Shown here: positions 937 to 60,911 of the stretch, piece by piece
Layout of the letters: each line of letters opens with the position of its first letter
Position numbering within the stretch: position 1 is the first letter of the stretch
Assembly: GCA_019054805.1 (NCBI GenBank)
Contig: JAHQIY010000016.1
Coordinates: forward strand, 1,488,001 to 1,552,000
DNA length: 64,000 nucleotides
Direction: 5' to 3'
DNA from: Brachionus manjavacas
Lineage: Eukaryota > Rotifera > Eurotatoria > Ploima > Brachionidae
Notes under the pieces: model-generated
Databases searched by the model: none
What the model saw: the letters and a program-made list of their open reading frames with translations, nothing else
Told to the model about the DNA's origin: nothing
Position numbers and translations under genes: made by a program

Positions 937-3935
937 ATGAGTTCATTTGACCATTCACATGGTGGAATATGTTGGGCTATAAATAAAAAATTTGGAATTG
1001 AAAAATGTGAAATGTTTGATATGGATATCATCTTAATAGAATTAACATTGCCCAACTTTAAAATTAATATTCAAGGAGTTTGGATGCCATTCGATGATGG
1101 AACAATAACGAAAATGGCTGAATTTGAATCTAACATAGCTCTCTTAGAGGCAAATGTGAAAATGTCTCCGGTAGAAGCACATATTATACTTGGCGATTTT
1201 AATTCTGCAATACATAGGAATAATATCAAAAGATTTGATATTAGACTGAATGAAATGATATCAAAAATTAGATTTACAAATATGTACGATCATTTCAATA
1301 AAGAGGATGATTTAACATATGAAAAAGGAGATTACAAATCTCGAATTGATCACATCTTTTCAAACAACGCAGCATGCGGTATAATTAATGATTGTATTAT
1401 AATGCATGATGAAATGAATCTAAGTGATCACAATCCGATAGCTGCTGTTATACAATATCTAAGCGGCTCGGAAAATATACAAACAACTCAAACTGAAAAA
1501 AATTTTCATAGATTTGATTGGAAAAATTGTGATTTTATAAATGAATTTCGTAATGAAATGAAAAATAATTTAGAAAATAATGACAATAAATTTGATTTAA
1601 AAGCAGTTAAAACGGCTAATGAATTCAAGGCTTTAGCAAAAGAAAATATTACTAAACTAAATAAAATATTTTTAAAAAGTGCTAGGAACGCAGAGAATTA
1701 TTTAATTAAATCTAGAAAAAATAAATTAGCACCGAGACCAAATAATTATTTAAATAAATTATGGCATGACATCACAATTAGCAATGTAAAAAGCCAATTC
1801 AAAAAAATACAATTTAATAGAATACGTAAAAACATGCGTAGATATCAGAGAAATAATCATTACAAAAAAAATGAAAAAAAATGTATTCAAATTGACAAAA
1901 TGTTGAATTGTGATAAGCAAGATTTCTGGAATATAATTAAAAAATACAAAAACAATCTCAAAAATAATCAAGAAGAAAACAAACTTGAGTGTGATGATTT
2001 TGCTAAATACTACTCTAAACTGTTTTCACACCATGATCGAACTTCTAATGCTGAACAACAACTTGTAGAAGAAAAAGTTAAACAGTTGTATGACGCAGCA
2101 ATGCTGATTGAAAATAAAAATGATTTTTTCACGGAAATGGAGCTACTGACATGTATTAGTAATTTGGAGCTTGGTAAAGCTATTGGTTATGATGGTATCA
2201 GTAATGAAATGTATAAATATGGTATTGGTTTGCAAATCACAGACATGTTAATTCAGCTATTCAACGGTATGATGAGACACGGTGTAGTACCGGAAGACCT
2301 AAACATATCACTAGTCACGCCTATACCAAAAAAAGGTACAATGAAAATCGTTGGGGACTATAGACCAATATCAGTGTCCACATCATTAGCTCTTCTAATG
2401 GAGGCATTAATTTTACAAAAAATTGATTTCAAATCAATGTTAAACAAAAATCAATTTGGTTACCAGCCAAAAACATCGTGCAAGCATGCTTACTTCAAAG
2501 TGAATGAAACCATCAATTACTATGTAAATGGCAAATCCGAAATTAAGCTGGTAAGTCTTGATGCTACAAAAGCTTTTGATAAATTATGGCGTGAAGGCCT
2601 TTTTTTAAAACTGTACAACAAAATTGATTTATTTATATGGCGTCTTTTGGTATCATATTATAAAATGTCAAAAATAATAGTAAAAGTTGGAAATGGTAAG
2701 TCTGAGCTGTACCATACAACACAAGGCGTAAAACAGGGTGGAATTTTATCACCGTTTCTGTTTAATTACTTCATTAATGGCCTTTTGGAGGAATGCCAGA
2801 TCTTAAACATTGGAGCTAAAATTGGGGAGCAAAATCTTTCTTTTATTGGATACTGTGATGATATAATGCTAATGGCCACAAACAGTACTGATATGAATCA
2901 GTTATTGCAAGTTTGTCATGATTATGCTATTAAATGGAAAATGGAATTTAATCAAAGCAAATCGAACTTTGTCAACTTCGGAAATCCTTTCCATAACACC
3001 AAAATAATGATGAATGGTGTTGAAATACCATTCACTTCTAATTTTGAATATTTAGGCTTGCCTATAGGAGACCGAGATTATAAGTTAAAATTTATTGAGA
3101 AAATATTTCACAAATGCGAACGGTCATTTTACTCATTATATGGTTTTGGTTGCAAGCCTGGTGGGTTGAATCCCAAAACTATTGGTTTCATTTATAAACA
3201 ATTTTGTCAATCAATATTTAAGAATGGACTTGAGATGCTTCACATCAGCAAAACGCAATTGAATAAATTTAACATTCGTCAAAATATATTAATAAAAAAA
3301 TCAATAGGAGTTTCAAAATTTGCCAAAACGTCTCCTCTTTTAAGGTACTTAATATTGATTCTATTCAAACTGTTTATAGAAAACATAAATTATTTATGTT
3401 CAATCAAATCCACACTAATGAATTAACGAAACAAATTTACGAGGAACTAAAATCGTTGTATGACAAGAAGCTGCTGAGTCAAAGTAATGAATCGTTTTAC
3501 AAGCAGTATGCAATGGTTGCTGATGAATACCAAGTCGATGGTCCATTAGCTAGCAAATTAATATCAAAGCTAATTGGAAATGGACACAAATGTGAAAATT
3601 TGTGTCTATTAGACTCAATCAAATTTATTTTCAATAGTCTCTATAATAGAGAAGTCTCAAATTATCAGCAAAACATTAATCTATTAAGACACTTGTTGGA
3701 CTATAATAATTATAATGAAAACAATATAAATATTGAAGATTTAAATAACATAAATTTATATGAGCATATAGGTTGAATATTTAAATTCGTCGTAAAACAA
3801 CGAAAATTGACTTTGTCAGATTCAATTACTTTTATATTTATTTTATTTAATTTTGAAATTATTTTTTTTTATAACTTTTTGACCTATGAGGTCTATACAG
3901 GTTTTTTTGTCAATAAATAGTAATAGTAATTAACC
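937..3935 (+). mobile_element. Non-LTR retrotransposon (LINE), endonuclease + reverse transcriptase, frameshifted
   Basis: A long frame (937-3426) encodes the C-terminal half of an endonuclease/exonuclease/phosphatase domain (GDFNS at about 1192; SDHNPI at about 1423) followed by a reverse transcriptase. RT signs are PIPKKG, DYRPIS, SLDATKAFD, QGVKQGGILSPFLF and the active-site block GYCDDIMLMA at about 2850. The usual YADD/FADD is YCDD here; both catalytic aspartates remain. The N-terminal half of the endonuclease is missing, so the copy is 5'-truncated. Near 3340 a one-base shift moves the natural continuation (LNIDSIQTVYRKHKL) into the frame that runs to 3776, so the copy is broken. The 3' UTR holds a small hairpin (GACCTATGAGGTC, about 3880) and ends in a TAATAGTAATAGTAATT-type tail near 3935. 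Confidence 0.85.
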
Positions 3936-49948: not shown

Positions 49949-51633
49949 ACACGAAAAATTTTTAACTAACTTTTAAAGGAAATTTTTAATTTTTTTAAAA
50001 TTTTTTAAAAATTAAAAATTTCTATTTTTAATTAACTGATTTTTATCTGATTTTTATCTAGTTTTTAGTTTGATTTTATCTAGTTAAAATGATTTAGTCA
50101 ATTTTTAAAAGAAATTTTTTTATAGCTTAATAGAAACGAAATTAGAGATTCATGATGACACGATTTAAACGCAACAGTTTTGTTTTTTCAATTAAAAGCT
50201 TTTTCAATTTATACCATTTAAAATAAAATTTAACTATAATCTTGGTTTTTGTTATTTCATCTCATTTTATTTTAAAAAAAATGTAAAATAATATTTTTAA
50301 TTGTTGAAAAGGGTTAAAATTTAAAAAATTACGATACTTATTCGGCGATTTAAATTAAATTTTTTGGAATAAAAAGTGTGCGATTAAAATTTTTTTTTGA
50401 ATTAAATTTTTGAAAAAATTTAAAATATGATTACAAATAGATAAAAAAATTACTATTTTTGGATTTTTTTTTCATTTTAATTTTCTTTTTGTGCCTTTTA
50501 TTTCTTGGTTTACCTTGGCTTGTCAACTTTTTTACTGACTTGTCTTGATGTTCACATAACTGTGTTGTTAAGACCTCTTTAATGAATATGGTTACATAAA
50601 AATTACTTTTTTGGACCAAATGTAGTTGAAAATATCTTAGTTCGTTTTCATTTTAAAAATAACAAAAATTTTAAAATTGAAGGATTATAAATGAATAAAA
50701 TTTAGCTAGTAAATGTTGTTTAAATAAAGATTAAGCTATTTGAAAGGGTACTTTATTCAATCTACCCTATGCACATAGACTAAATTTTAGTCACTAAAAC
50801 AATTTAATCTACATAATCTAATTTTTTTTTATTTATCTAATTTCGTTCATTTTCTCGCATCAAAAGCAGCTACATTCCTTCTTCCGAGAGACTTAAATCC
50901 TCTCAATTATCCGGAACTATTGTTGCCATAGAACAAGCGAATAAGTATTAATTAAATAATTTGTTGCTGATTTCAATTTTTAATAAATTAAAATTTTGCC
51001 TAAGTTTCATTGAAAATTTTAAACAGGAATTCTAATTTGGTTTTAATTAAAAAATTTTTGCCTTTAAAAAAAAAGAGAAAAAGACTGTTTGTAATTAAAA
51101 ATTTCTAACCAAAACAATTTTCAACGAAAGAGAGTTCAATTTTCAAAATTTAAAAAATATTTGAATTTTTTTTCTAATTAAAAAAATCAGATGATCAAAA
51201 ACAGATTTTACAATTGTTCTTTATCTTGATATTTTCAATCTTAAGATTTTCTAGAAATTGTAAATTTTTTAAAGAAAACAATTTGAATAATTTAAAATGC
51301 GAGTTTTTATCACATCAAAGTTGGTTGCTTATCTAATCATACATTTAGGCTAATAGCCATTTTATTGATTATTTTGAATACTTAATTCTTACTAGATAAT
51401 TTTATCAACTTAACTCTCATAAACTATTTTATATTTTATAACTTGTTCACATTTTATTCAACTTGTTATTTTTTTTTATCAAAAATATTAAATTTCCAAA
51501 AATCAGAACAAATCTAAAGATAAAGCTATCTTATTTTACCATTTCATTATTTGATTTTTATTTAATTTAAAAAAATTGAATAAAATCTAAAACTTAATGC
51601 ATTTGATTTAAGAAAAAAATAATTTAGATAAAA
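49949..51633. other. Intergenic AT-rich DNA
   Basis: No gene, RNA or clear repeat is seen between the ERICH3-like gene and the transporter. Confidence 0.4.
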
Positions 51634-53496
51634 ATGAACCCTGATTATGTTGAAGTCAAGCGATTTAGCAGAGTTGTCAAAATTCTTAAGACACACTGGC
51701 TATTGGTGAGTATATTAATTAGTATAGTGATAGGTTTTTCCATCGGAATTGGTCTCAAAAGCGCCAAAATAGATAAAGAAATAGTCGAATGGCTGACATT
51801 GCCTGGCAATTTGTTCATCCGATCACTTGAATTGCTAATAGTGCCTGTAGTTTTTGTTGGTGTAGTTGCTGCAACCGGGTCTCTTAGCGCCAAATCAAAT
51901 TTAAAAATAACCCTAATATGTGTTGGTCTTTGCTTTCTAACTCACATCTTGGCAACTATAGTGGGCCTGTTCGGATCATTAGTACTAGTAAGTTTATCAT
52001 CTAAAAACATTGACTCCTCAGACCGAGTTGAATCTGTTGGAAAACAAAAAACAGCTTACGATATCATAGCTGACATACTGAGAAATTTAATTCCGAAAAA
52101 CATTATCAAAGCAACTACTAATCAAGAATTAACCAGATATTTTTTGGTAAATACAACAAATTCAAGTGTTTATGTGAGGAAAGTTGAGTATATTGAAGGA
52201 ACAAATATCTTGGGAATTTTAATTTTTGCTCTTTTGATCGGTTTATCTGCGAGTGTTTTAGACAAACGAGCCGAATTGTTCCGCGAGTTTTTCCGCTCGT
52301 GCAATGATGTAGTAATATTGGTTCTCAGATGGCTGATTTTGGTGGCTCCGCTAGGCATCGCATCACTCATAATCGAGGCCATATATGATGTTGATGATCT
52401 TGGTGAAAGTTTTAAAAAAATCGGCCTATTCACTGGTATATGCATTGCCGCGCTTTTAGTTTATGGAATCTTTGTTCTTGGTTTAATGTTTTTTATTTTG
52501 ACCAGAAAAAATCCACTAAAGTATTACCTAAGTTTTTTGGAGCCAATGCTTCTAGCATTTGCTAGCACAAGTGGAGCAGTATGCATCCATAAATCTATAG
52601 ATATATGCGAAAATGAATTAGAAATAGACTCAAGAATGGCACGGTTTACCATTCCTTTTTACACCACTCTTCAAGCTGATGGAAGTTCGATTTTTATTGT
52701 GATGGCCTGTGCTTTTTTATCTAATTATTTTGGTTTTGAGCTCACTGCCGGCGATTACATAGTCATCATAATAATGACCAGTATTCTGTGCTTGTGCTTG
52801 CCTTCTGTGCCTAGCTCTTCCATAGTCACTATTCTTGTTGTACTAAATGCAATCAATTTTACCGAAGTAAATATAGCAATTCTATATACTGTTGAATGGC
52901 TACTTGACAGGTAAAAATTTTTCCATTGAGGCATGTGACCAAAAAAATACCAGAAAGATATTGTAGAAAAAAGATATTCTTTAGTTGTAATATGGTTGTT
53001 CAAACATATTACAACATTCACCAACTAAATAGAAATCGAAAGCATTCAATTTCTATCAAGGAACTCTTGACCAAAAATCCAAGTTTTTTTATTTCAAGTT
53101 CAAGGGTTCATTTAGTTGTTCTCATATAAATATATTTAATATGTTTTTAAATTAAGTGAATATAAAGAAAAATGAAAATTAATTTTTTTTTTTTTAAATA
53201 ATTAATTTTTCTATAAGTTAATAAGACTAATAGAATTTTTTTAAAAAATTCATTTTTGTCACACGCTACAATATCAAAGAATCAAATCAATGTGAAAAAA
53301 TTTCTTTAGAACCCGAACAGCGGTAAATTTGTACAGTCATTGTTTTTGTGCAGTAATTACATTCGAACTGTGTAAAAAAGATTTGGACCACTTGGAATTA
53401 GGTGATCATGCTCATGTTCATATAGAAGATAGTCAAGTGCCTCTCAATCAAATTTCCAATGAGACCAATTTAGAAGAGGACATTACTAAAGTTTAA
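51634..53496 (+). CDS. Divergent SLC1 (EAAT-like) transporter
   Basis: Two exons (51634-52910 and 53310-53496) give 487 aa with the SLC1 layout: N-terminal GIGLKSAKIDKE-type TM2, FIRSLELLIVPVVFVGVV, a long N-glycosylable loop (NTTNSS), then a C-terminal transport core. The core is recognisable but altered. HP1 SSSAT-P reads ASTSGAVC, TM7 NMDGT reads QADGS, HP2 IPxAG reads VPSSS, and TM8 DxxRTxxNVxGD reads DRTRTAVNLYSH. In GltPh numbering D394, R397 and N401 are kept while D405 (a Na1 ligand) is His and N310 is Gln. Ordinary Na-coupled glutamate transport is therefore doubtful; it may move another substrate, act as a channel, or be a scaffold. The cytoplasmic tail is acidic with HAHVH. Confidence 0.85.
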
Positions 53497-56049: not shown

Positions 56050-56748
56050 CAAAAAATATTCGTTAAATAAGGAAGTTAGAAAAAAGGAGATTAAGAGCAG
56101 GATGATTCAACATTTTTAGAAAAAAATTGAAAGCATCTTAACTGATTTTGAATTTATTGACTGTTGAAACTTACAATGGCAAACCATTCTTTTATTCTTG
56201 ACTCTATTGTTGAATAAGTTGGTCCTAAGCAAGCGGTTTGGTAGAGGCCTAACCAGAGTTTCTTTTCACATGCCCTTTGATCTCCTGAGGAGGTTGAGTC
56301 CGACATTCTTGAAGTGATGCTTAGCACTGGACTATTTTATTCATTTTTTTAATAACTGCCATGATTTACCAAAAACTTTCAAAACTCTGAAAAAATTTTT
56401 AGTAAGATTTGAAATCTTTATTTTTGACAAGGATTTAAGAAAAGCTACACAAAAGATGTATTTTTTAAACTAAAATAAATTATTAAAAATTTTCGATCAG
56501 TTTCAAGGTTAATTAATAGGCTACTATTGAAGTGATTTTTTAAACTAAAATAAGATTATTAAAAAAATTCAGATAAAGAATTTGAGATTCATTTTTCAAA
56601 AATTTTTAATTCTTTTATTATTCCGGCTAGTTTTCAATTTTTGATAAATCTAATTAAAATTTTTTGGTAACAGGCCGAATCAATTTTCAAAGAACGAATA
56701 TAAACCTTGTTCGTCTGAATGAAAGAAATTTAATTATTTTACTAAAAG

Positions 56749-57495
56749 GATGAAACGGATATAGAAATAATTGGTTATATGAAAATTCATTGGAATCTAA
56801 AAAAACCGATCAAGCTAAGTGACAAAAGCATTGAAATGAATGAATTGAGCGAAAAAGATGATTCCTACTCGAGCTTTAAAGCAACCTCAGTTCGAGACCT
56901 AAAGAAAAAGAGGGAACTAATTAGCCTGGATGATACATTTTCAAAGACATCGGCAAAAATGTCTGAAAATTTTTTTCGAAATCAAACTGTTAAAGTTAAA
57001 TCTTTGTCAAAATCGTCAAATAGAGGTTCTATTTTACAAGACGATTTACTGGAAGAGAAAAAATCCACCAAAGACGAAATGTTTTTGCCAAGCTATGGAA
57101 GTGCATCAAACATATGTGTAGATAATAAAACAACATGCTACAAAGCCATTAAAATTTTGCTCGAAAAATTTCATATACTTAACTCACCTGAAGATTACTC
57201 TTTGTACAAAGTGTACCAGTCAGGCGAGATTAGAGAGCTAAATAGTGGTGATTTTCCACTAATGCAAAGACTCTACATGGGGCCTTTCAATGAGGACAAA
57301 ATTTTCATCATGGAAAAAGGACACGTGGTAGACATGGATCCAGATGTAATGAATTTGGTCACTTTGCCAAAAGCTTTACTTAAGGCTTTAATTGAGAGCT
57401 CGAAAAAAGAGGAATCAAAAGAAATAAGCGAGTTCAAGCAAAAATATAAAATTTACCGAGATATTCTCAATCATAGATTAAAATCTCTCAAATAA
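56749..57495 (+). CDS. RASSF-family protein (RA + SARAH), last exon
   Basis: The exon opens after a splice acceptor (ACTAAAAG|GATGAAAC). It reads DETDIEIIGYMKIHWNLKKP, the conserved start of RASSF2/4/6, so coding begins upstream of the ATG at 56779. A Ras-association domain follows (FLPSYGSASNICVDNKTT, KILLEKFHILNSPEDYSLYK, then PLMQRLYMGPFN, IFIMEKG). A C-terminal SARAH helix (SEFKQKYKIYRDILNHRLKS) runs to the stop. RASSF proteins link Ras-type GTPases to MST/Hippo kinases through SARAH pairing. The length from the acceptor is 248 aa; missing N-terminal residues are probably those at 53941-54643. Confidence 0.88.
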   Translation, partial: DETDIEIIGYMKIHWNLKKPIKLSDKSIEMNELSEKDDSYSSFKATSVRDLKKKRELISLDDTFSKTSAKMSENFFRNQTVKVKSLSKSSNRGSILQDDLLEEKKSTKDEMFLPSYGSASNICVDNKTTCYKAIKILLEKFHILNSPEDYSLYKVYQSGEIRELNSGDFPLMQRLYMGPFNEDKIFIMEKGHVVDMDPDVMNLVTLPKALLKALIESSKKEESKEISEFKQKYKIYRDILNHRLKSLK

Positions 57496-57696: not shown

Positions 57697-58185
57697 ATGA
57701 ATAATTTATCTTTTGTTTTCTTATCTGTCTTGATAGGCTTATGCTTGTCTGAGACCAATCCCTTTTTAAGTTTGAGAGACGCTTCGGAATTCACGGAAAA
57801 AAAGGCACCGTCCAAGCGATTTTTTTATAATGGAAAAGAACAGCGAAGAGAAGCTAAAGAGAACTATGAGGAAAAATGTGAAAGAAATTTCATTAGCGCT
57901 GCACTGAACAAACCGCGATGGTGTCCCGAACTGGAAGAATGGCCTGCATGGAATTACGAGGCTAGGAACGATGGTTACAAATCCAAAACTAAAATGCTTA
58001 GCCCTGGTTCTCATTATAACCAATATCAAAGACCTGGTTATACTGAAAATCATCATTTTTTTAACCATCATAGTAACAGCAAGAACAATTTTGACATTAA
58101 TAAATATCCTTTTAACCAAAATGGAAACATTAACTTTAACAATCAGTTCAAACCAAATCAACCAAATTATCCTACTGGAAATTAA
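57697..58185 (+). CDS. Secreted Gla-like peptide 1
   Basis: A single exon encodes 162 aa. A signal peptide (residues 1-18) precedes a short pro-region ending in a dibasic KR (40-41). The core FFYNGKEQRREAKENYEEKC follows, with E55-x3-E59-x-C61, the pattern associated with gamma-carboxyglutamate domains. A second cysteine 15 residues on (PRWCPELEEWPAW) probably closes a loop, followed by aromatic residues. The C-terminal ~75 residues are Asn/His/Phe-rich and absent from the two paralogues. Calling it a Gla protein is inference from motif, secretion signal and layout. Confidence 0.75.
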   Translation: MNNLSFVFLSVLIGLCLSETNPFLSLRDASEFTEKKAPSKRFFYNGKEQRREAKENYEEKCERNFISAALNKPRWCPELEEWPAWNYEARNDGYKSKTKMLSPGSHYNQYQRPGYTENHHFFNHHSNSKNNFDINKYPFNQNGNINFNNQFKPNQPNYPTGN

Positions 58186-58456
58186 TAAATTTTTAAAAAT
58201 TACTAAACTAATTTTTTTGCTTAATTTTTTTTTTCATTAAATAAAATTATGAGATTTAAAATTTTTCTTTCAATTAACTTCAAAATGATTGCTTCTAAAT
58301 TTTAAAAAATTTACTGCTGTTCTTCGAGTTTTATAATTGCATTACAAAATTTGATATTTTAGATTAATAAATTTTTTTATGCAAGGCTAAGTATTAAAAT
58401 TTAAAATTTTGTTAGCCTAAATTACTAGAATTAATAATAATTAAAATAATAATATA

Positions 58457-58530
58457 AGTTACATCAAGCTAGCAAGCTAGACTTGCGAAGATGGGAAACA
58501 GTAGGATCCCATCTATGGTAACTGTAGTAT
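58457..58530 (-). repeat. Structured 3' tail of a retroelement (copy B)
   Basis: GCAAG-CTAGA-CTTGC then AGATGGGA-AACAGTAGGA-TCCCATCT (58489-58514, perfect) and ATGGTAACT. Compared with copy A at 40086, both sides of the second stem changed together (G-C to A-T, C-G to G-C, C-G to A-T). An AAT-rich tract lies on the low-coordinate side, as in copy A. Confidence 0.55.
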
Positions 58531-58907
58531 GTACACTTAATCAGTAAAATTCATTATGTCAGTATATAATTAATTAAAAGATGATAATAATGTTTGAAAA
58601 GGAAGAAGAGTGTCGTGGAGAACTTGTTGGCTTTTGGTAATTTGGTTCGATGTTGAGATGGATAGGGGCCTCGGGTCCGATTTAATTAAACTTTCATTTT
58701 TTATTAGTTTTGGGTTTTCTATTATAATTATTGAATTTAAAAACAAATACTAATTGAATATGGTCTACTTAAACGGTTCTTTTTTTTCATGATGAAAAAA
58801 CTAAATTTTCTTTAAAAAAAATAATTTTTTTTTAAAAATTTTATTTAAACCAAAACTAAATAATTAAAAATCATAAAAATATTTTATTAAATTCAAAATC
58901 ATGTGGT

Positions 58908-59270
58908 CTATTCACCATTTTCGTAAGCTCTAAATTCTTTCCTTAAAATAAAAAAATTAGAAAGTTTTCTCAATCTGACAAATATTTGTTACCATCTTTT
59001 GATATCCGGACAAAATCTTTGAGTCGGGATAATACTCTCACACTTTTCTTCATAAACTTCGCGAGTCTCTCTCTTTATTTCCTCGTTTTTGGTGCTAAAT
59101 GGATGGAAAAAACTGCGCTTGAAAAATTCCGAAGCTTCTTTTTTCTCCATAAGCTCATCTTCCAATTCTCGTTTGAACTGATCTTCGGCTAGAGCATCCA
59201 GAACCAAATTAGCTCGCACCAAAGTCACGAACGCCAAAACAAATACAGTAGCAGCTATAATTTTTTTCAT
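58908..59270 (-). CDS. Secreted Gla-like peptide 2
   Basis: Two exons (58993-59270 and 58908-58941) join to 103 aa. The reading frame also closes without splicing two bases after the donor, but the spliced version restores the tail KEFRAYENGE, which lines up with the W-P-x-W ends of the two paralogues. A signal peptide (1-20), an acidic pro-region with KR pairs (33-34, 51-52) and the core KRETREVYEEKCE with E71-x3-E75-x-C77 are visible; the second Cys is in RFCPDIKRW, 10 residues on. It is divergent from peptide 3: starts lie 202 bp apart, implying a shared promoter. Confidence 0.75.
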
Positions 59271-59354
59271 TTTTTAAATCTTCAAACTAAGAAATAACTC
59301 AGATCAATTTATTTTCTAAGATATTCGATTAGAATAATCAGTTAATTTATTTTT

Positions 59355-59360
59355 TATAAA
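59355..59360 (+). promoter_or_regulatory. TATA box candidate in the peptide 2/3 divergent promoter
   Basis: TATAAA lies 113 bp upstream of the peptide 3 start codon, inside the 202-bp gap between two divergent paralogues. In this AT-rich genome the match alone is weak; the position is what makes it plausible. Confidence 0.3.
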
Positions 59361-59472
59361 TGGTTTTGGAATTGCGTTTGATTTTTAGATGATTATGCAA
59401 ACTCCATAAGCTATCCGAGTTTAAAAACTTAAACTTCAATTCAATAGATTAACACAAAAAAGAAATCTAAAA

Positions 59473-59796
59473 ATGCATCTGAGCTTGGTTTTTGTGGTTT
59501 TAATAGGCATATCGGTAAGCAACGCTTACCCAGAAGCCGATTTTGCCCAACGAGATGAAGCAATGGAATTTTTGAACGAGAAACGGCAACTGGACACAGT
59601 TAAGAGATTTTTTTATTCTGGAAAAGAGCAGAGACGCGAAGTTAGAGAAAGATATGAGGAAAAATGCGAAGGCAACTTACTTAGACAAGCATTGAAAAAG
59701 CCTCGCTGGTGCCCGGAATTGGATACTTGGCCAGAGTGGAGAGCTGCTGAAGGACTATCAAATTCTCAAAATTTAAAGAAAAAAATATCTGGTTGA
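59473..59796 (+). CDS. Secreted Gla-like peptide 3
   Basis: A single exon encodes 107 aa. A signal peptide (1-18, ending SNA) is followed by a pro-region with KR at 37-38 and 44-45. The core FFYSGKEQRREVRERYEEKC contains E59-x3-E63-x-C65. The second Cys is in PRWCPELDTWPEW, 15 residues later. The core is nearly the same as in peptide 1 (FFY-x-GKEQRRE, YEEKCE, KPRWCPEL, W-P-x-W), so the two are recent paralogues, while peptide 2 is more distant. It is a compact version without the Asn-rich tail of peptide 1. Confidence 0.78.
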   Translation: MHLSLVFVVLIGISVSNAYPEADFAQRDEAMEFLNEKRQLDTVKRFFYSGKEQRREVRERYEEKCEGNLLRQALKKPRWCPELDTWPEWRAAEGLSNSQNLKKKISG

Positions 59797-59864: not shown

Positions 59865-60911
59865 TTAATTTTTATAATTAACTAAATTTTGAGGGTTCAA
59901 GATTTGTGAATTATTCACCACGGTTCGATAAGGTGGTGGTAGATCGGCTGAATATGCTGAATTGGTTCTACTGATATGACTGTAAAATGGCACATTGCTT
60001 ACCATGCGGACTGTTCGTCTTTGTCTTTTTTTAACACACATTATAATTAGACAAATTATCAGAAAAAAAAAGCTGGATGAAAACGAAAAAACCAACCCTG
60101 GAAAATTGGCAAAAATAAATCTTAAACTTTGCTTAATTTTATAATTTCTTACAGTAATATTGGTTGTAAAACAAATAACAACATTGTTCTTGGTTAAATC
60201 CACAACAATAACTATCATAGTAAGCTTTGGAGAATAAAATTATAAGTTTTGATGATTTGAATTTTATAAAGGTCAAAATATTTTTTTATATCAACTTTTT
60301 ATCACCTTTTTAATAAAAGCTCATAATAAAAATAAATTTTTTGTAACGAAAAATAACAATTCAAAATTTAATCTCTTTAGAAAAAAAATTAATTTTTAGT
60401 GACAAAGAAAATGAATCATTTTCAAAATTCACCTATAAAAATATTAATTGAAAGCTAAATGTTTAATCAAAAGTTCAAAAAGAAAACGGAGAATGGCATT
60501 AATGAATAATCCTTGATTTTGTCTGCGTCAATATAGAGAATAGGTTTAGAAAATTAAATTATAGCATTTTTTTATGTCATATTTGGGATTAGTTCTAAAT
60601 TTTATTGTTATAACATTTTAGAATCCAGTTCTTGATCGTCATAAATTGTTTAATATAATTTTGTATTAAACGCTAATTTAATGGCAAAAAATTTACAAAA
60701 AAGATTGTAAACGTAACTAACTGTTTTGCCTTACTTTAAAAAATAGCCAAGCATATACATTTAAGAAAGTTTCATGTATATCTTAAAAATTGTTTTTTAG
60801 TGATAGAATTTTTTTTAGCTTACCATTGCATATTGTTTCTCCGCACTTTCCGGCACTATTAACCTTACTCAAAACTCCAAGAATTGCAGCAATAAAAAAA
60901 GTTTTATTCAT
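59865..60911 (-). CDS. Cys-rich single-pass membrane protein with PPPY motif, 1
   Basis: Three exons (60824-60911, 60153-60224, 59865-60097; phases 1 and 1) join to 130 aa. A signal peptide (MNKTFFIAAILGVLSKVNSA) is followed by a short Cys-rich ectodomain (KCGETIC, then SYCCGFNQEQCC). One TM helix (about 54-75) precedes a basic stop-transfer KKRQRR and a cytoplasmic tail with ADLPPPYRTVV. This is the plan of the Shisa/CYYR1/WBP1/VOPP1 (STMC6) superfamily: paired cysteines, one helix, and PPxY motifs that bind WW domains, often of NEDD4 ubiquitin ligases. The exact member cannot be named. The first intron is ~600 nt, the second short. It is a paralogue of the next gene. Confidence 0.75.

What the first reader, a model, noticed from the sequence alone, without database searches (positions are those of the whole stretch)
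57697..59796. Cluster of three secreted peptides with the E-x3-E-x-C pattern of Gla proteins
Seen: three paralogues in 2.1 kb, each with signal peptide, dibasic pro-region, [R/K]-x-[R/K]E-x-x-[R/K]E-x-YEEKCE core and a second Cys followed by W-rich residues. Known: E-x3-E-x-C is the conserved substrate motif within vitamin K-dependent Gla domains. Inference: these may be an undescribed invertebrate family of gamma-carboxylated secreted peptides (calcium or membrane binding). The three copies are one family, so the motif counts as one observation; still, it is kept while flanks diverged.
Basis: partly seen in the sequence, partly recalled or inferred. Interest (0 to 1): 0.75.

Follow-up and report, generated by a model that had tools for sequence, protein, structure and literature searches.

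The report
Candidate vitamin K-dependent secreted peptide family
Three neighbouring genes of an invertebrate encode small secreted peptides that look like substrates of the vitamin K-dependent enzyme that activates vertebrate clotting and bone proteins, and the genome carries that enzyme, but it has not been shown that the peptides are modified.

Summary
Three short, divergent, constrained genes (57697-58185 +, 58989-59270 -, 59473-59796 +) encode a signal-like start, a pro-region with dibasic sites, and a 17-residue core in which six Glu and the Cys are invariant. tblastn finds no other credible copy in the 114-Mb genome.

E-x3-E-x-C alone is close to chance here (254 pattern hits against 186 for the reversed control). 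Three further facts lift the interpretation. (1) The genome has a GGCX gene keeping the catalytic Lys218, and two VKOR-like loci. (2) Each pro-region carries [F/L]-x5-A-x-E-F, the F-16/A-10 spacing of vertebrate carboxylation propeptides; from its Ala to the motif Cys are 32, 31 and 35 residues, against 32 in factor IX. (3) Five of the six Glu columns differ only by silent codon changes.

Against: no Gla or UCMA profile match; propeptide scores below all eight vertebrate propeptides used; a weak P2 pro-region; and periostin, which has the same spacing but was found not carboxylated. Resemblance to UCMA (Gla-rich protein) is suggestive only.

My reading: about even odds that this is a new family of small Gla peptides; one mass-spectrometry experiment would decide.

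The parts
57697..58185 (+). P1: secreted-peptide precursor gene, 162 aa, single open frame with stop; long Asn/His/Gln-rich tail
   Evidence: constrained against P3
58989..59270 (-). P2: secreted-peptide precursor gene, 93 aa, the most divergent copy, without the WxxW tail
59473..59796 (+). P3: secreted-peptide precursor gene, 107 aa
57763..57792 (+). P1 pro-region element FLSLRDASEF (F-x5-A-x2-F), candidate GGCX docking site
   Evidence: matrix score 6.6 bits, 1.6% of shuffles reach it
59124..59153 (-). P2 pro-region element LMEKKEASEF; weak and of uncertain alignment
   Evidence: 2.2 bits, 31% of shuffles reach it; MAFFT places it differently
59542..59571 (+). P3 pro-region element FAQRDEAMEF followed by L (F-x5-A-x3-L)
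   Evidence: 6.6 bits, 2.6% of shuffles reach it
57832..57882 (+). P1 core GKEQRREAKENYEEKCE with E-x3-E-x-C
59037..59087 (-). P2 core NEEIKRETREVYEEKCE with E-x3-E-x-C
59620..59670 (+). P3 core GKEQRREVRERYEEKCE with E-x3-E-x-C

Best explanation
[quoted passage not shown] In the ER the pro-region, probably helical, docks on GGCX through F/L, A and F in the spacing of vertebrate -16/-10/-7 positions. GGCX converts several of the six invariant core Glu to Gla, a convertase cuts at KR, and a small peptide with two Cys, probably paired, is released. With calcium the Gla at i, i+4, i+7, i+11 and i+14 on one helix face would form a metal-dependent surface for anionic membrane, matrix or a receptor. 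Shown here: the genes, selection on the core, the pro-region element and its distance to the core, and the presence of GGCX and VKOR-like genes. Inferred: secretion, docking, carboxylation, cleavage, disulfide, calcium binding and any physiological role.
For: GGCX gene: three matches at C2:5510706-5513680 over the curated cut-off; translated exons match solved GGCX chains at E 2.1e-24, 1.4e-66 and 1.5e-36; of the residues that PMC12589487 names within the two stretches compared, 6 of 8 (K217, K218 included) and 13 of 14 are identical. Two VKOR-like loci. [FL]-x5-A-x-E-F in 3 of 3 pro-regions; vertebrate consensus F-16, A-10, L-6 (PMC5578492, passages). Ala to motif Cys 32, 31, 35 residues; factor IX 32. 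Six Glu columns invariant in 3 of 3, five of them with silent codon changes. Signal-like start plus upstream AxxF plus motif: 3 of 3 here, 0 of 92 control cores.
Against: E-x3-E-x-C alone is near background. No Gla-domain or UCMA profile match. Pro-region matrix scores 6.6, 2.2 and 6.6 bits against 9.3-19.1 for eight vertebrate propeptides left out in turn; 4 of 327 background segments reach 6.6, 20 of 327 reach 2.2. AxxF alone arises in 26-45% of shuffled pro-regions. Glu columns are not significantly more conserved than other core columns (Fisher p 0.08). Periostin has F-x5-A-x3-L and was found not carboxylated (PMC4537219, passages). No peptide data.
Confidence: 0.5

Rival explanations
1. 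Ordinary, unmodified secreted peptides (hormone-like or matrix-like): a charged Glu/Arg/Lys amphipathic helix and one disulfide. Glu is kept for salt bridges with the interleaved Arg/Lys; AxEF is just part of a helical pro-region.
For: E-x3-E-x-C alone is near background; no Gla or UCMA profile match; weak matrix score for P2; periostin precedent (PMC4537219, passages); basic residues are also conserved in the core (R6, K15; [RK]5, [KR]9); helix predicted over residues 25-66 of P3 at low confidence.
Against: It does not predict that AxEF, its F/L six residues upstream and a factor-IX-like distance to the motif should go together, nor the absence of this combination from 92 control cores.
Confidence: 0.37
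2. Lineage-specific, fast-evolving secreted effector or defence peptides in which the Glu-rich core serves some other purpose.
For: Small local cluster of single open frames; pro-regions and tails change fast (dN 0.61 with saturated dS before KR); only three copies found in the genome.
Against: The P1/P3 mature part is under purifying selection (dN 0.20, dS 1.55). No relatives were found in genome contigs or viral contigs, but these do not hold animal genomes, so that is uninformative.
Confidence: 0.1
3. Not functional genes: chance ORFs or decayed copies.
For: Short, single open frames in AT-rich DNA; no expression data.
Against: Silent changes dominate in the mature part of P1/P3; 8 of 10 invariant core columns differ only in silent codon positions; all three frames are intact with start and stop.
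Confidence: 0.03

Closest known systems
Vertebrate Gla-domain precursors (coagulation factor IX as example; Pfam Gla PF00594)
   Same: Signal-like start, propeptide with F-x5-A spacing, KR, then Glu-rich segment with E-x3-E-x-C; Ala-to-Cys distance 32 against 32, 31, 35.
   Different: No PF00594 match at the locus; whole-precursor similarity is at chance for P1 and P2 and weak for P3 (1259, 440, 150 of 3000 shuffles); the first Cys of the factor IX Cys pair is missing; no EGF or protease part.
Matrix Gla protein (MGP) and osteocalcin (BGP)
   Same: Short secreted protein; AxxF (MGP: PMC8117146, one passage); E-x3-E-x-C (recalled); P1 ETNPFLSLRDASEF resembles MGP ELNPFINRRNANTF (MGP recalled; 133 of 40000 shuffles).
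   Different: P3 (364 of 3000) and P2 (66 of 3000) resemble MGP less or not; profile comparison at chance (75 of 200); osteocalcin not clearly above chance (170, 70, 290 of 1000); Cys spacing differs (9 or 14 residues between the Cys).
UCMA / Gla-rich protein (PF17085)
   Same: AxxF pro-region, dibasic site, Glu/Arg-rich mature part, WxxW tail in P1 and P3; P1 alignment 77 of 40000 shuffles, P3 88 of 3000; profile against UCMA beats 200 of 200 shuffles, over 22 tail columns.
   Different: No PF17085 match; P2 not similar (781 of 3000); UCMA's mature part has no Cys (recalled letters, family confirmed); UCMA has five coding exons and is reported as apparently absent from invertebrates (PMC13204790, passages).
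Cone-snail Gla peptides (conantokins)
   Same: Small secreted precursors of an invertebrate; the Glu stripe i, i+4, i+7, i+11 is like the Gla positions of conantokin-G (recalled).
   Different: Not compared by sequence here; no E-x3-E-x-C in conantokins as far as I recall; nothing points to a venom here.

Membership tests
GGCX substrate (vitamin K-dependent protein, broad sense) | Gla residues present in the mature protein | not testable with these tools
   needs mass spectrometry
GGCX substrate (vitamin K-dependent protein, broad sense) | GGCX and vitamin K reductase encoded by the organism | tested here: met
GGCX substrate (vitamin K-dependent protein, broad sense) | Recognition propeptide with F-16, A-10, L-6 | tested here: inconclusive
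   F-x5-A in P1 and P3, L-x5-A in P2; the L-6 position is T, F and L; scores 6.6, 2.2, 6.6 bits against 9.3-19.1 for vertebrate propeptides
GGCX substrate (vitamin K-dependent protein, broad sense) | Secreted (signal peptide) | tested here: inconclusive
   hydrophobic start in 3 of 3 by a simple rule; no dedicated predictor or experiment
Gla domain PF00594 | Profile match over the cut-off | tested here: not met
   best of 4 places E 6.4, on C13, none at this locus
Gla domain PF00594 | E-x3-E-x-C | tested here: met
   3 of 3, but the pattern is common in this genome
UCMA / Gla-rich protein PF17085 | Profile match over the cut-off | tested here: not met
   positive control, recalled human UCMA, 258.7 bits
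UCMA / Gla-rich protein PF17085 | Collinear sequence similarity | tested here: inconclusive
   P1 77 of 40000, P3 88 of 3000, P2 781 of 3000 shuffles; profile 7.7% probability; no hit of UCMA by tblastn in the genome
MGP / osteocalcin | AxxF docking element and E-x3-E-x-C with a Cys pair | tested here: inconclusive
   elements present, Cys spacing 9 or 14, sequence similarity only for P1; no Pfam model for MGP matched recalled MGP

The most novel reading that the evidence does not exclude
A native Gla-peptide family in a protostome outside the cone snails that shares ancestry with vertebrate UCMA/MGP-type small Gla proteins, so that the AXXF-bearing, dibasic-processed Gla precursor predates vertebrates and mineralised skeletons and is a dedicated substrate of invertebrate GGCX.
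Probability: 0.13. Interest if true: 0.82.

Novelty: new variant of a known kind. Interest (0 to 1): 0.6.

Why it matters
GGCX and VKOR occur in invertebrates, yet fly GGCX knock-outs show no apparent defect (PMC5578492, passages), so what the enzyme is for outside vertebrates and cone-snail venom is open. A three-gene candidate substrate family in a small animal would make that question directly testable. If kinship with UCMA or MGP held, the small Gla proteins would be older than skeletons.

Tried and rejected
Relatives elsewhere: scans of genome contigs and viral contigs gave none, but these hold prokaryote genomes and viral contigs, so this says nothing about other animals. The weak tblastn hit L004 (C15, E 4.2) and the weak UCMA-profile hit L012 (C1, E 0.39; SWIM/transposase-like by eye) were read and dismissed. 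The four weak Gla-profile hits on C13 are copies of one reverse-transcriptase-like stretch, by eye. P3 matched solved chains weakly (CnrR, E 0.0019; ten chains up to E 10, none a Gla protein); I take this as helix and composition. P1 matched none at E up to 10; P2 was not searched there. The structure model of P3 (mean pLDDT 59.8) was too weak for a fold search, so none was run. The promoter/terminator scan is for bacteria and uninformative. The species was not established; searches for a matching assembly paper gave nothing usable.

Literature: ten paper searches. I saw no paper on gamma-carboxylation in rotifers. Brachionus plus glutamyl carboxylase gave 2 papers, both on fish by title and abstract. 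The rotifer / carboxyglutam / vitamin K search showed only 10 of 897 papers. This is not proof of absence, and subscription journals are mostly not held.

Full report
What is there. Three ORFs lie in 2.1 kb: P1 57697-58185 (+), P2 58989-59270 (-), P3 59473-59796 (+). The precursors are 162, 93 and 107 aa. Each starts with a hydrophobic stretch, followed by a pro-region with dibasic sites, a Glu-rich core and a second Cys. P1 alone has a long Asn/His/Gln-rich tail. The genome held for the window has 114.17 Mb in 61 contigs. tblastn with each of the three finds these three; the only other hit, E 4.2 on C15, was dismissed on reading.

They are genes under constraint. The longest DNA stretch shared by P1 and P3 is 139 nt at 73%, from KR into the W-rich part. 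From KR to the first W of the tail dN is 0.20 and dS 1.55; before KR dN is 0.61 with dS saturated. In the 17-column core (Cys = 16) ten columns are invariant: E3, R6, E7, E10, Y12, E13, E14, K15, C16, E17. Eight of these ten, and five of the six Glu columns, have silent codon differences. The Glu columns are not significantly more conserved than the rest of so short a block (Fisher p 0.08).

The motif alone is weak. The DNA pattern for E-x3-E-x-C-E occurs 254 times in the genome, the same pattern reversed 186 times. As a control I took the 100 places that the tool listed (100 of 254); 92 have an open core. Within 45 residues upstream 1 of 92 has AxxF and 1 of 92 has hydrophobic-x5-A-x2-hydrophobic; 2 of 92 have a signal-like start, and 0 of 92 have such a start with either element. 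Under the same rules the cluster scores 3 of 3, which is one family and so one observation.

The enzyme is there. The HTTM/GGCX family gives three matches at C2:5510706-5513680. Translated exons match solved GGCX chains at E 2.1e-24, 1.4e-66 and 1.5e-36. Of the residues that PMC12589487 (parts 1 and 2 of 3 read) names within the two stretches I compared, 6 of 8 are identical in the TM5 exon, K217 and K218 among them (D220 and E230 differ), and 13 of 14 in the propeptide-binding part (Q503 differs). The WNNHSYLYGL stretch, which I take to hold N158, N159 and H160, is kept. VKOR-like genes lie on C10 and C3 over the cut-off, with a third weak match on C7 under it; those on C10 and C3 match solved VKOR or VKOR-like chains, and their open frames show C-x7-C and CIVC.

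The pro-region. All three carry [FL]-x4-[DE]-A-x-E-F: FLSLRDASEF, LMEKKEASEF, FAQRDEAMEF. Vertebrate recognition propeptides have F-16, A-10 and L-6 (PMC5578492, passages); in factor IX F31 enters a GGCX pocket and L41 makes contacts. P3 has exactly F-x5-A-x3-L. One review places AXXF in MGP (PMC8117146, one passage; it calls it a cleavage site followed by the recognition site). From the Ala to the Cys of E-x3-E-x-C there are 32, 31 and 35 residues, and 32 in factor IX (factor IX letters confirmed).

How strong is this? A matrix from eight vertebrate propeptides (factor IX checked, seven recalled) gives 6.6 (P1), 2.2 (P2) and 6.6 (P3) bits, against 9.3-19.1 for the vertebrate ones left out in turn. 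Of 327 background ORF segments 4 reach 6.6 and 20 reach 2.2. Shuffled pro-regions reach the score in 1.6% (P1), 31% (P2) and 2.6% (P3). AxxF alone turns up in 26-45% of shuffles. MAFFT aligns the P2 ASEF elsewhere, so in P2 the element is either mis-aligned or not homologous in place. Periostin is a direct warning: F540, A546 and L550 have this spacing, UniProt listed it as a Gla protein, and it was found not carboxylated (PMC4537219, abstract start and passages). There the element sits inside a folded domain, here in what looks like a cleavable pro-region.

Kinship. Pfam has no match for P1 or P3; P2 has only matches under the cut-off, best E 0.014 to DUF7202; trimmed P3 matches CotJB at E 0.11, under the cut-off. 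The Gla-domain profile misses the locus, as do the UCMA profile and the UCMA sequence. With shuffles of the rotifer-side sequence as control, P1 resembles UCMA (59; 77 of 40000) and MGP (49; 133 of 40000), and P3 resembles UCMA (50; 88 of 3000). P2 does not resemble UCMA (781 of 3000); P2 to MGP gives 66 and P3 to MGP 364 of 3000; factor IX gives 1259, 440 and 150 of 3000 for P1, P2 and P3. These are nine comparisons without correction. In one search, with other gap costs, osteocalcin gave 170, 70 and 290 of 1000. Of 722 genome ORF pieces, 0 score as high against UCMA as P1, 25 as P2 and 2 as P3; against MGP 2, 5 and 20; against factor IX 65, 11 and 1. A three-sequence profile against UCMA beats all 200 shuffles, but over 22 tail columns only and with 7.7% probability; for MGP 75 of 200 and for factor IX 6 of 200 shuffles reach the score. 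This is a lead, not membership. UCMA is reported as apparently absent from invertebrates (PMC13204790, passages).

Mechanism proposed. Shown: genes, constraint, element, spacing, enzymes. Inferred: ER entry, docking, carboxylation of core Glu, KR cleavage, disulfide, calcium-dependent surface. The invariant Glu at 3, 7, 10, 14 and 17 fall on one face of a helix, a spacing like that of conantokin-G Gla (recalled). A helix over residues 25-66 of P3 is predicted at low confidence (mean pLDDT 59.8); true recognition propeptides tend to be helical in vitro (PMC4537219, passage). I put gamma-carboxylation at about even odds.

Verdict. Observation confirmed. Not proven. The species, its relatives and the peptides themselves were out of reach.

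Noticed in passing
window 56746-57492 (+): Neighbouring gene with a Ras-association domain (PF00788, E 3.7e-7) and a weak SARAH-like end: RASSF-like, not part of the cluster.
   Followed up: partly
window 59865-60285 (-): Gene next to P3 that reads by eye as a single-pass membrane protein with a Cys/Tyr-rich outer part and a PPPY inner tail (Shisa/WBP1/CYYR-like look); no Pfam match over the cut-off.
   Followed up: partly
window 60783-60911 (-): Open frame MNKTFFIAAILGVLSKVNSAGKCGETICNGK..., perhaps the first exon of another small secreted Cys-containing protein (no Pfam match).
   Followed up: partly
window 937-3426 (+): Long open frame that reads by eye like a non-LTR retrotransposon endonuclease/reverse transcriptase.
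   Followed up: no
window 51628-52911 (+): Sodium:dicarboxylate symporter family gene (PF00375, 248 bits), an excitatory-amino-acid-transporter-like carrier.
   Followed up: partly
G000 C13:480869-511102 (-), loci L013-L015: Four near-identical repeats of a decayed reverse-transcriptase-like stretch that give weak chance matches to the Gla profile.
   Followed up: partly
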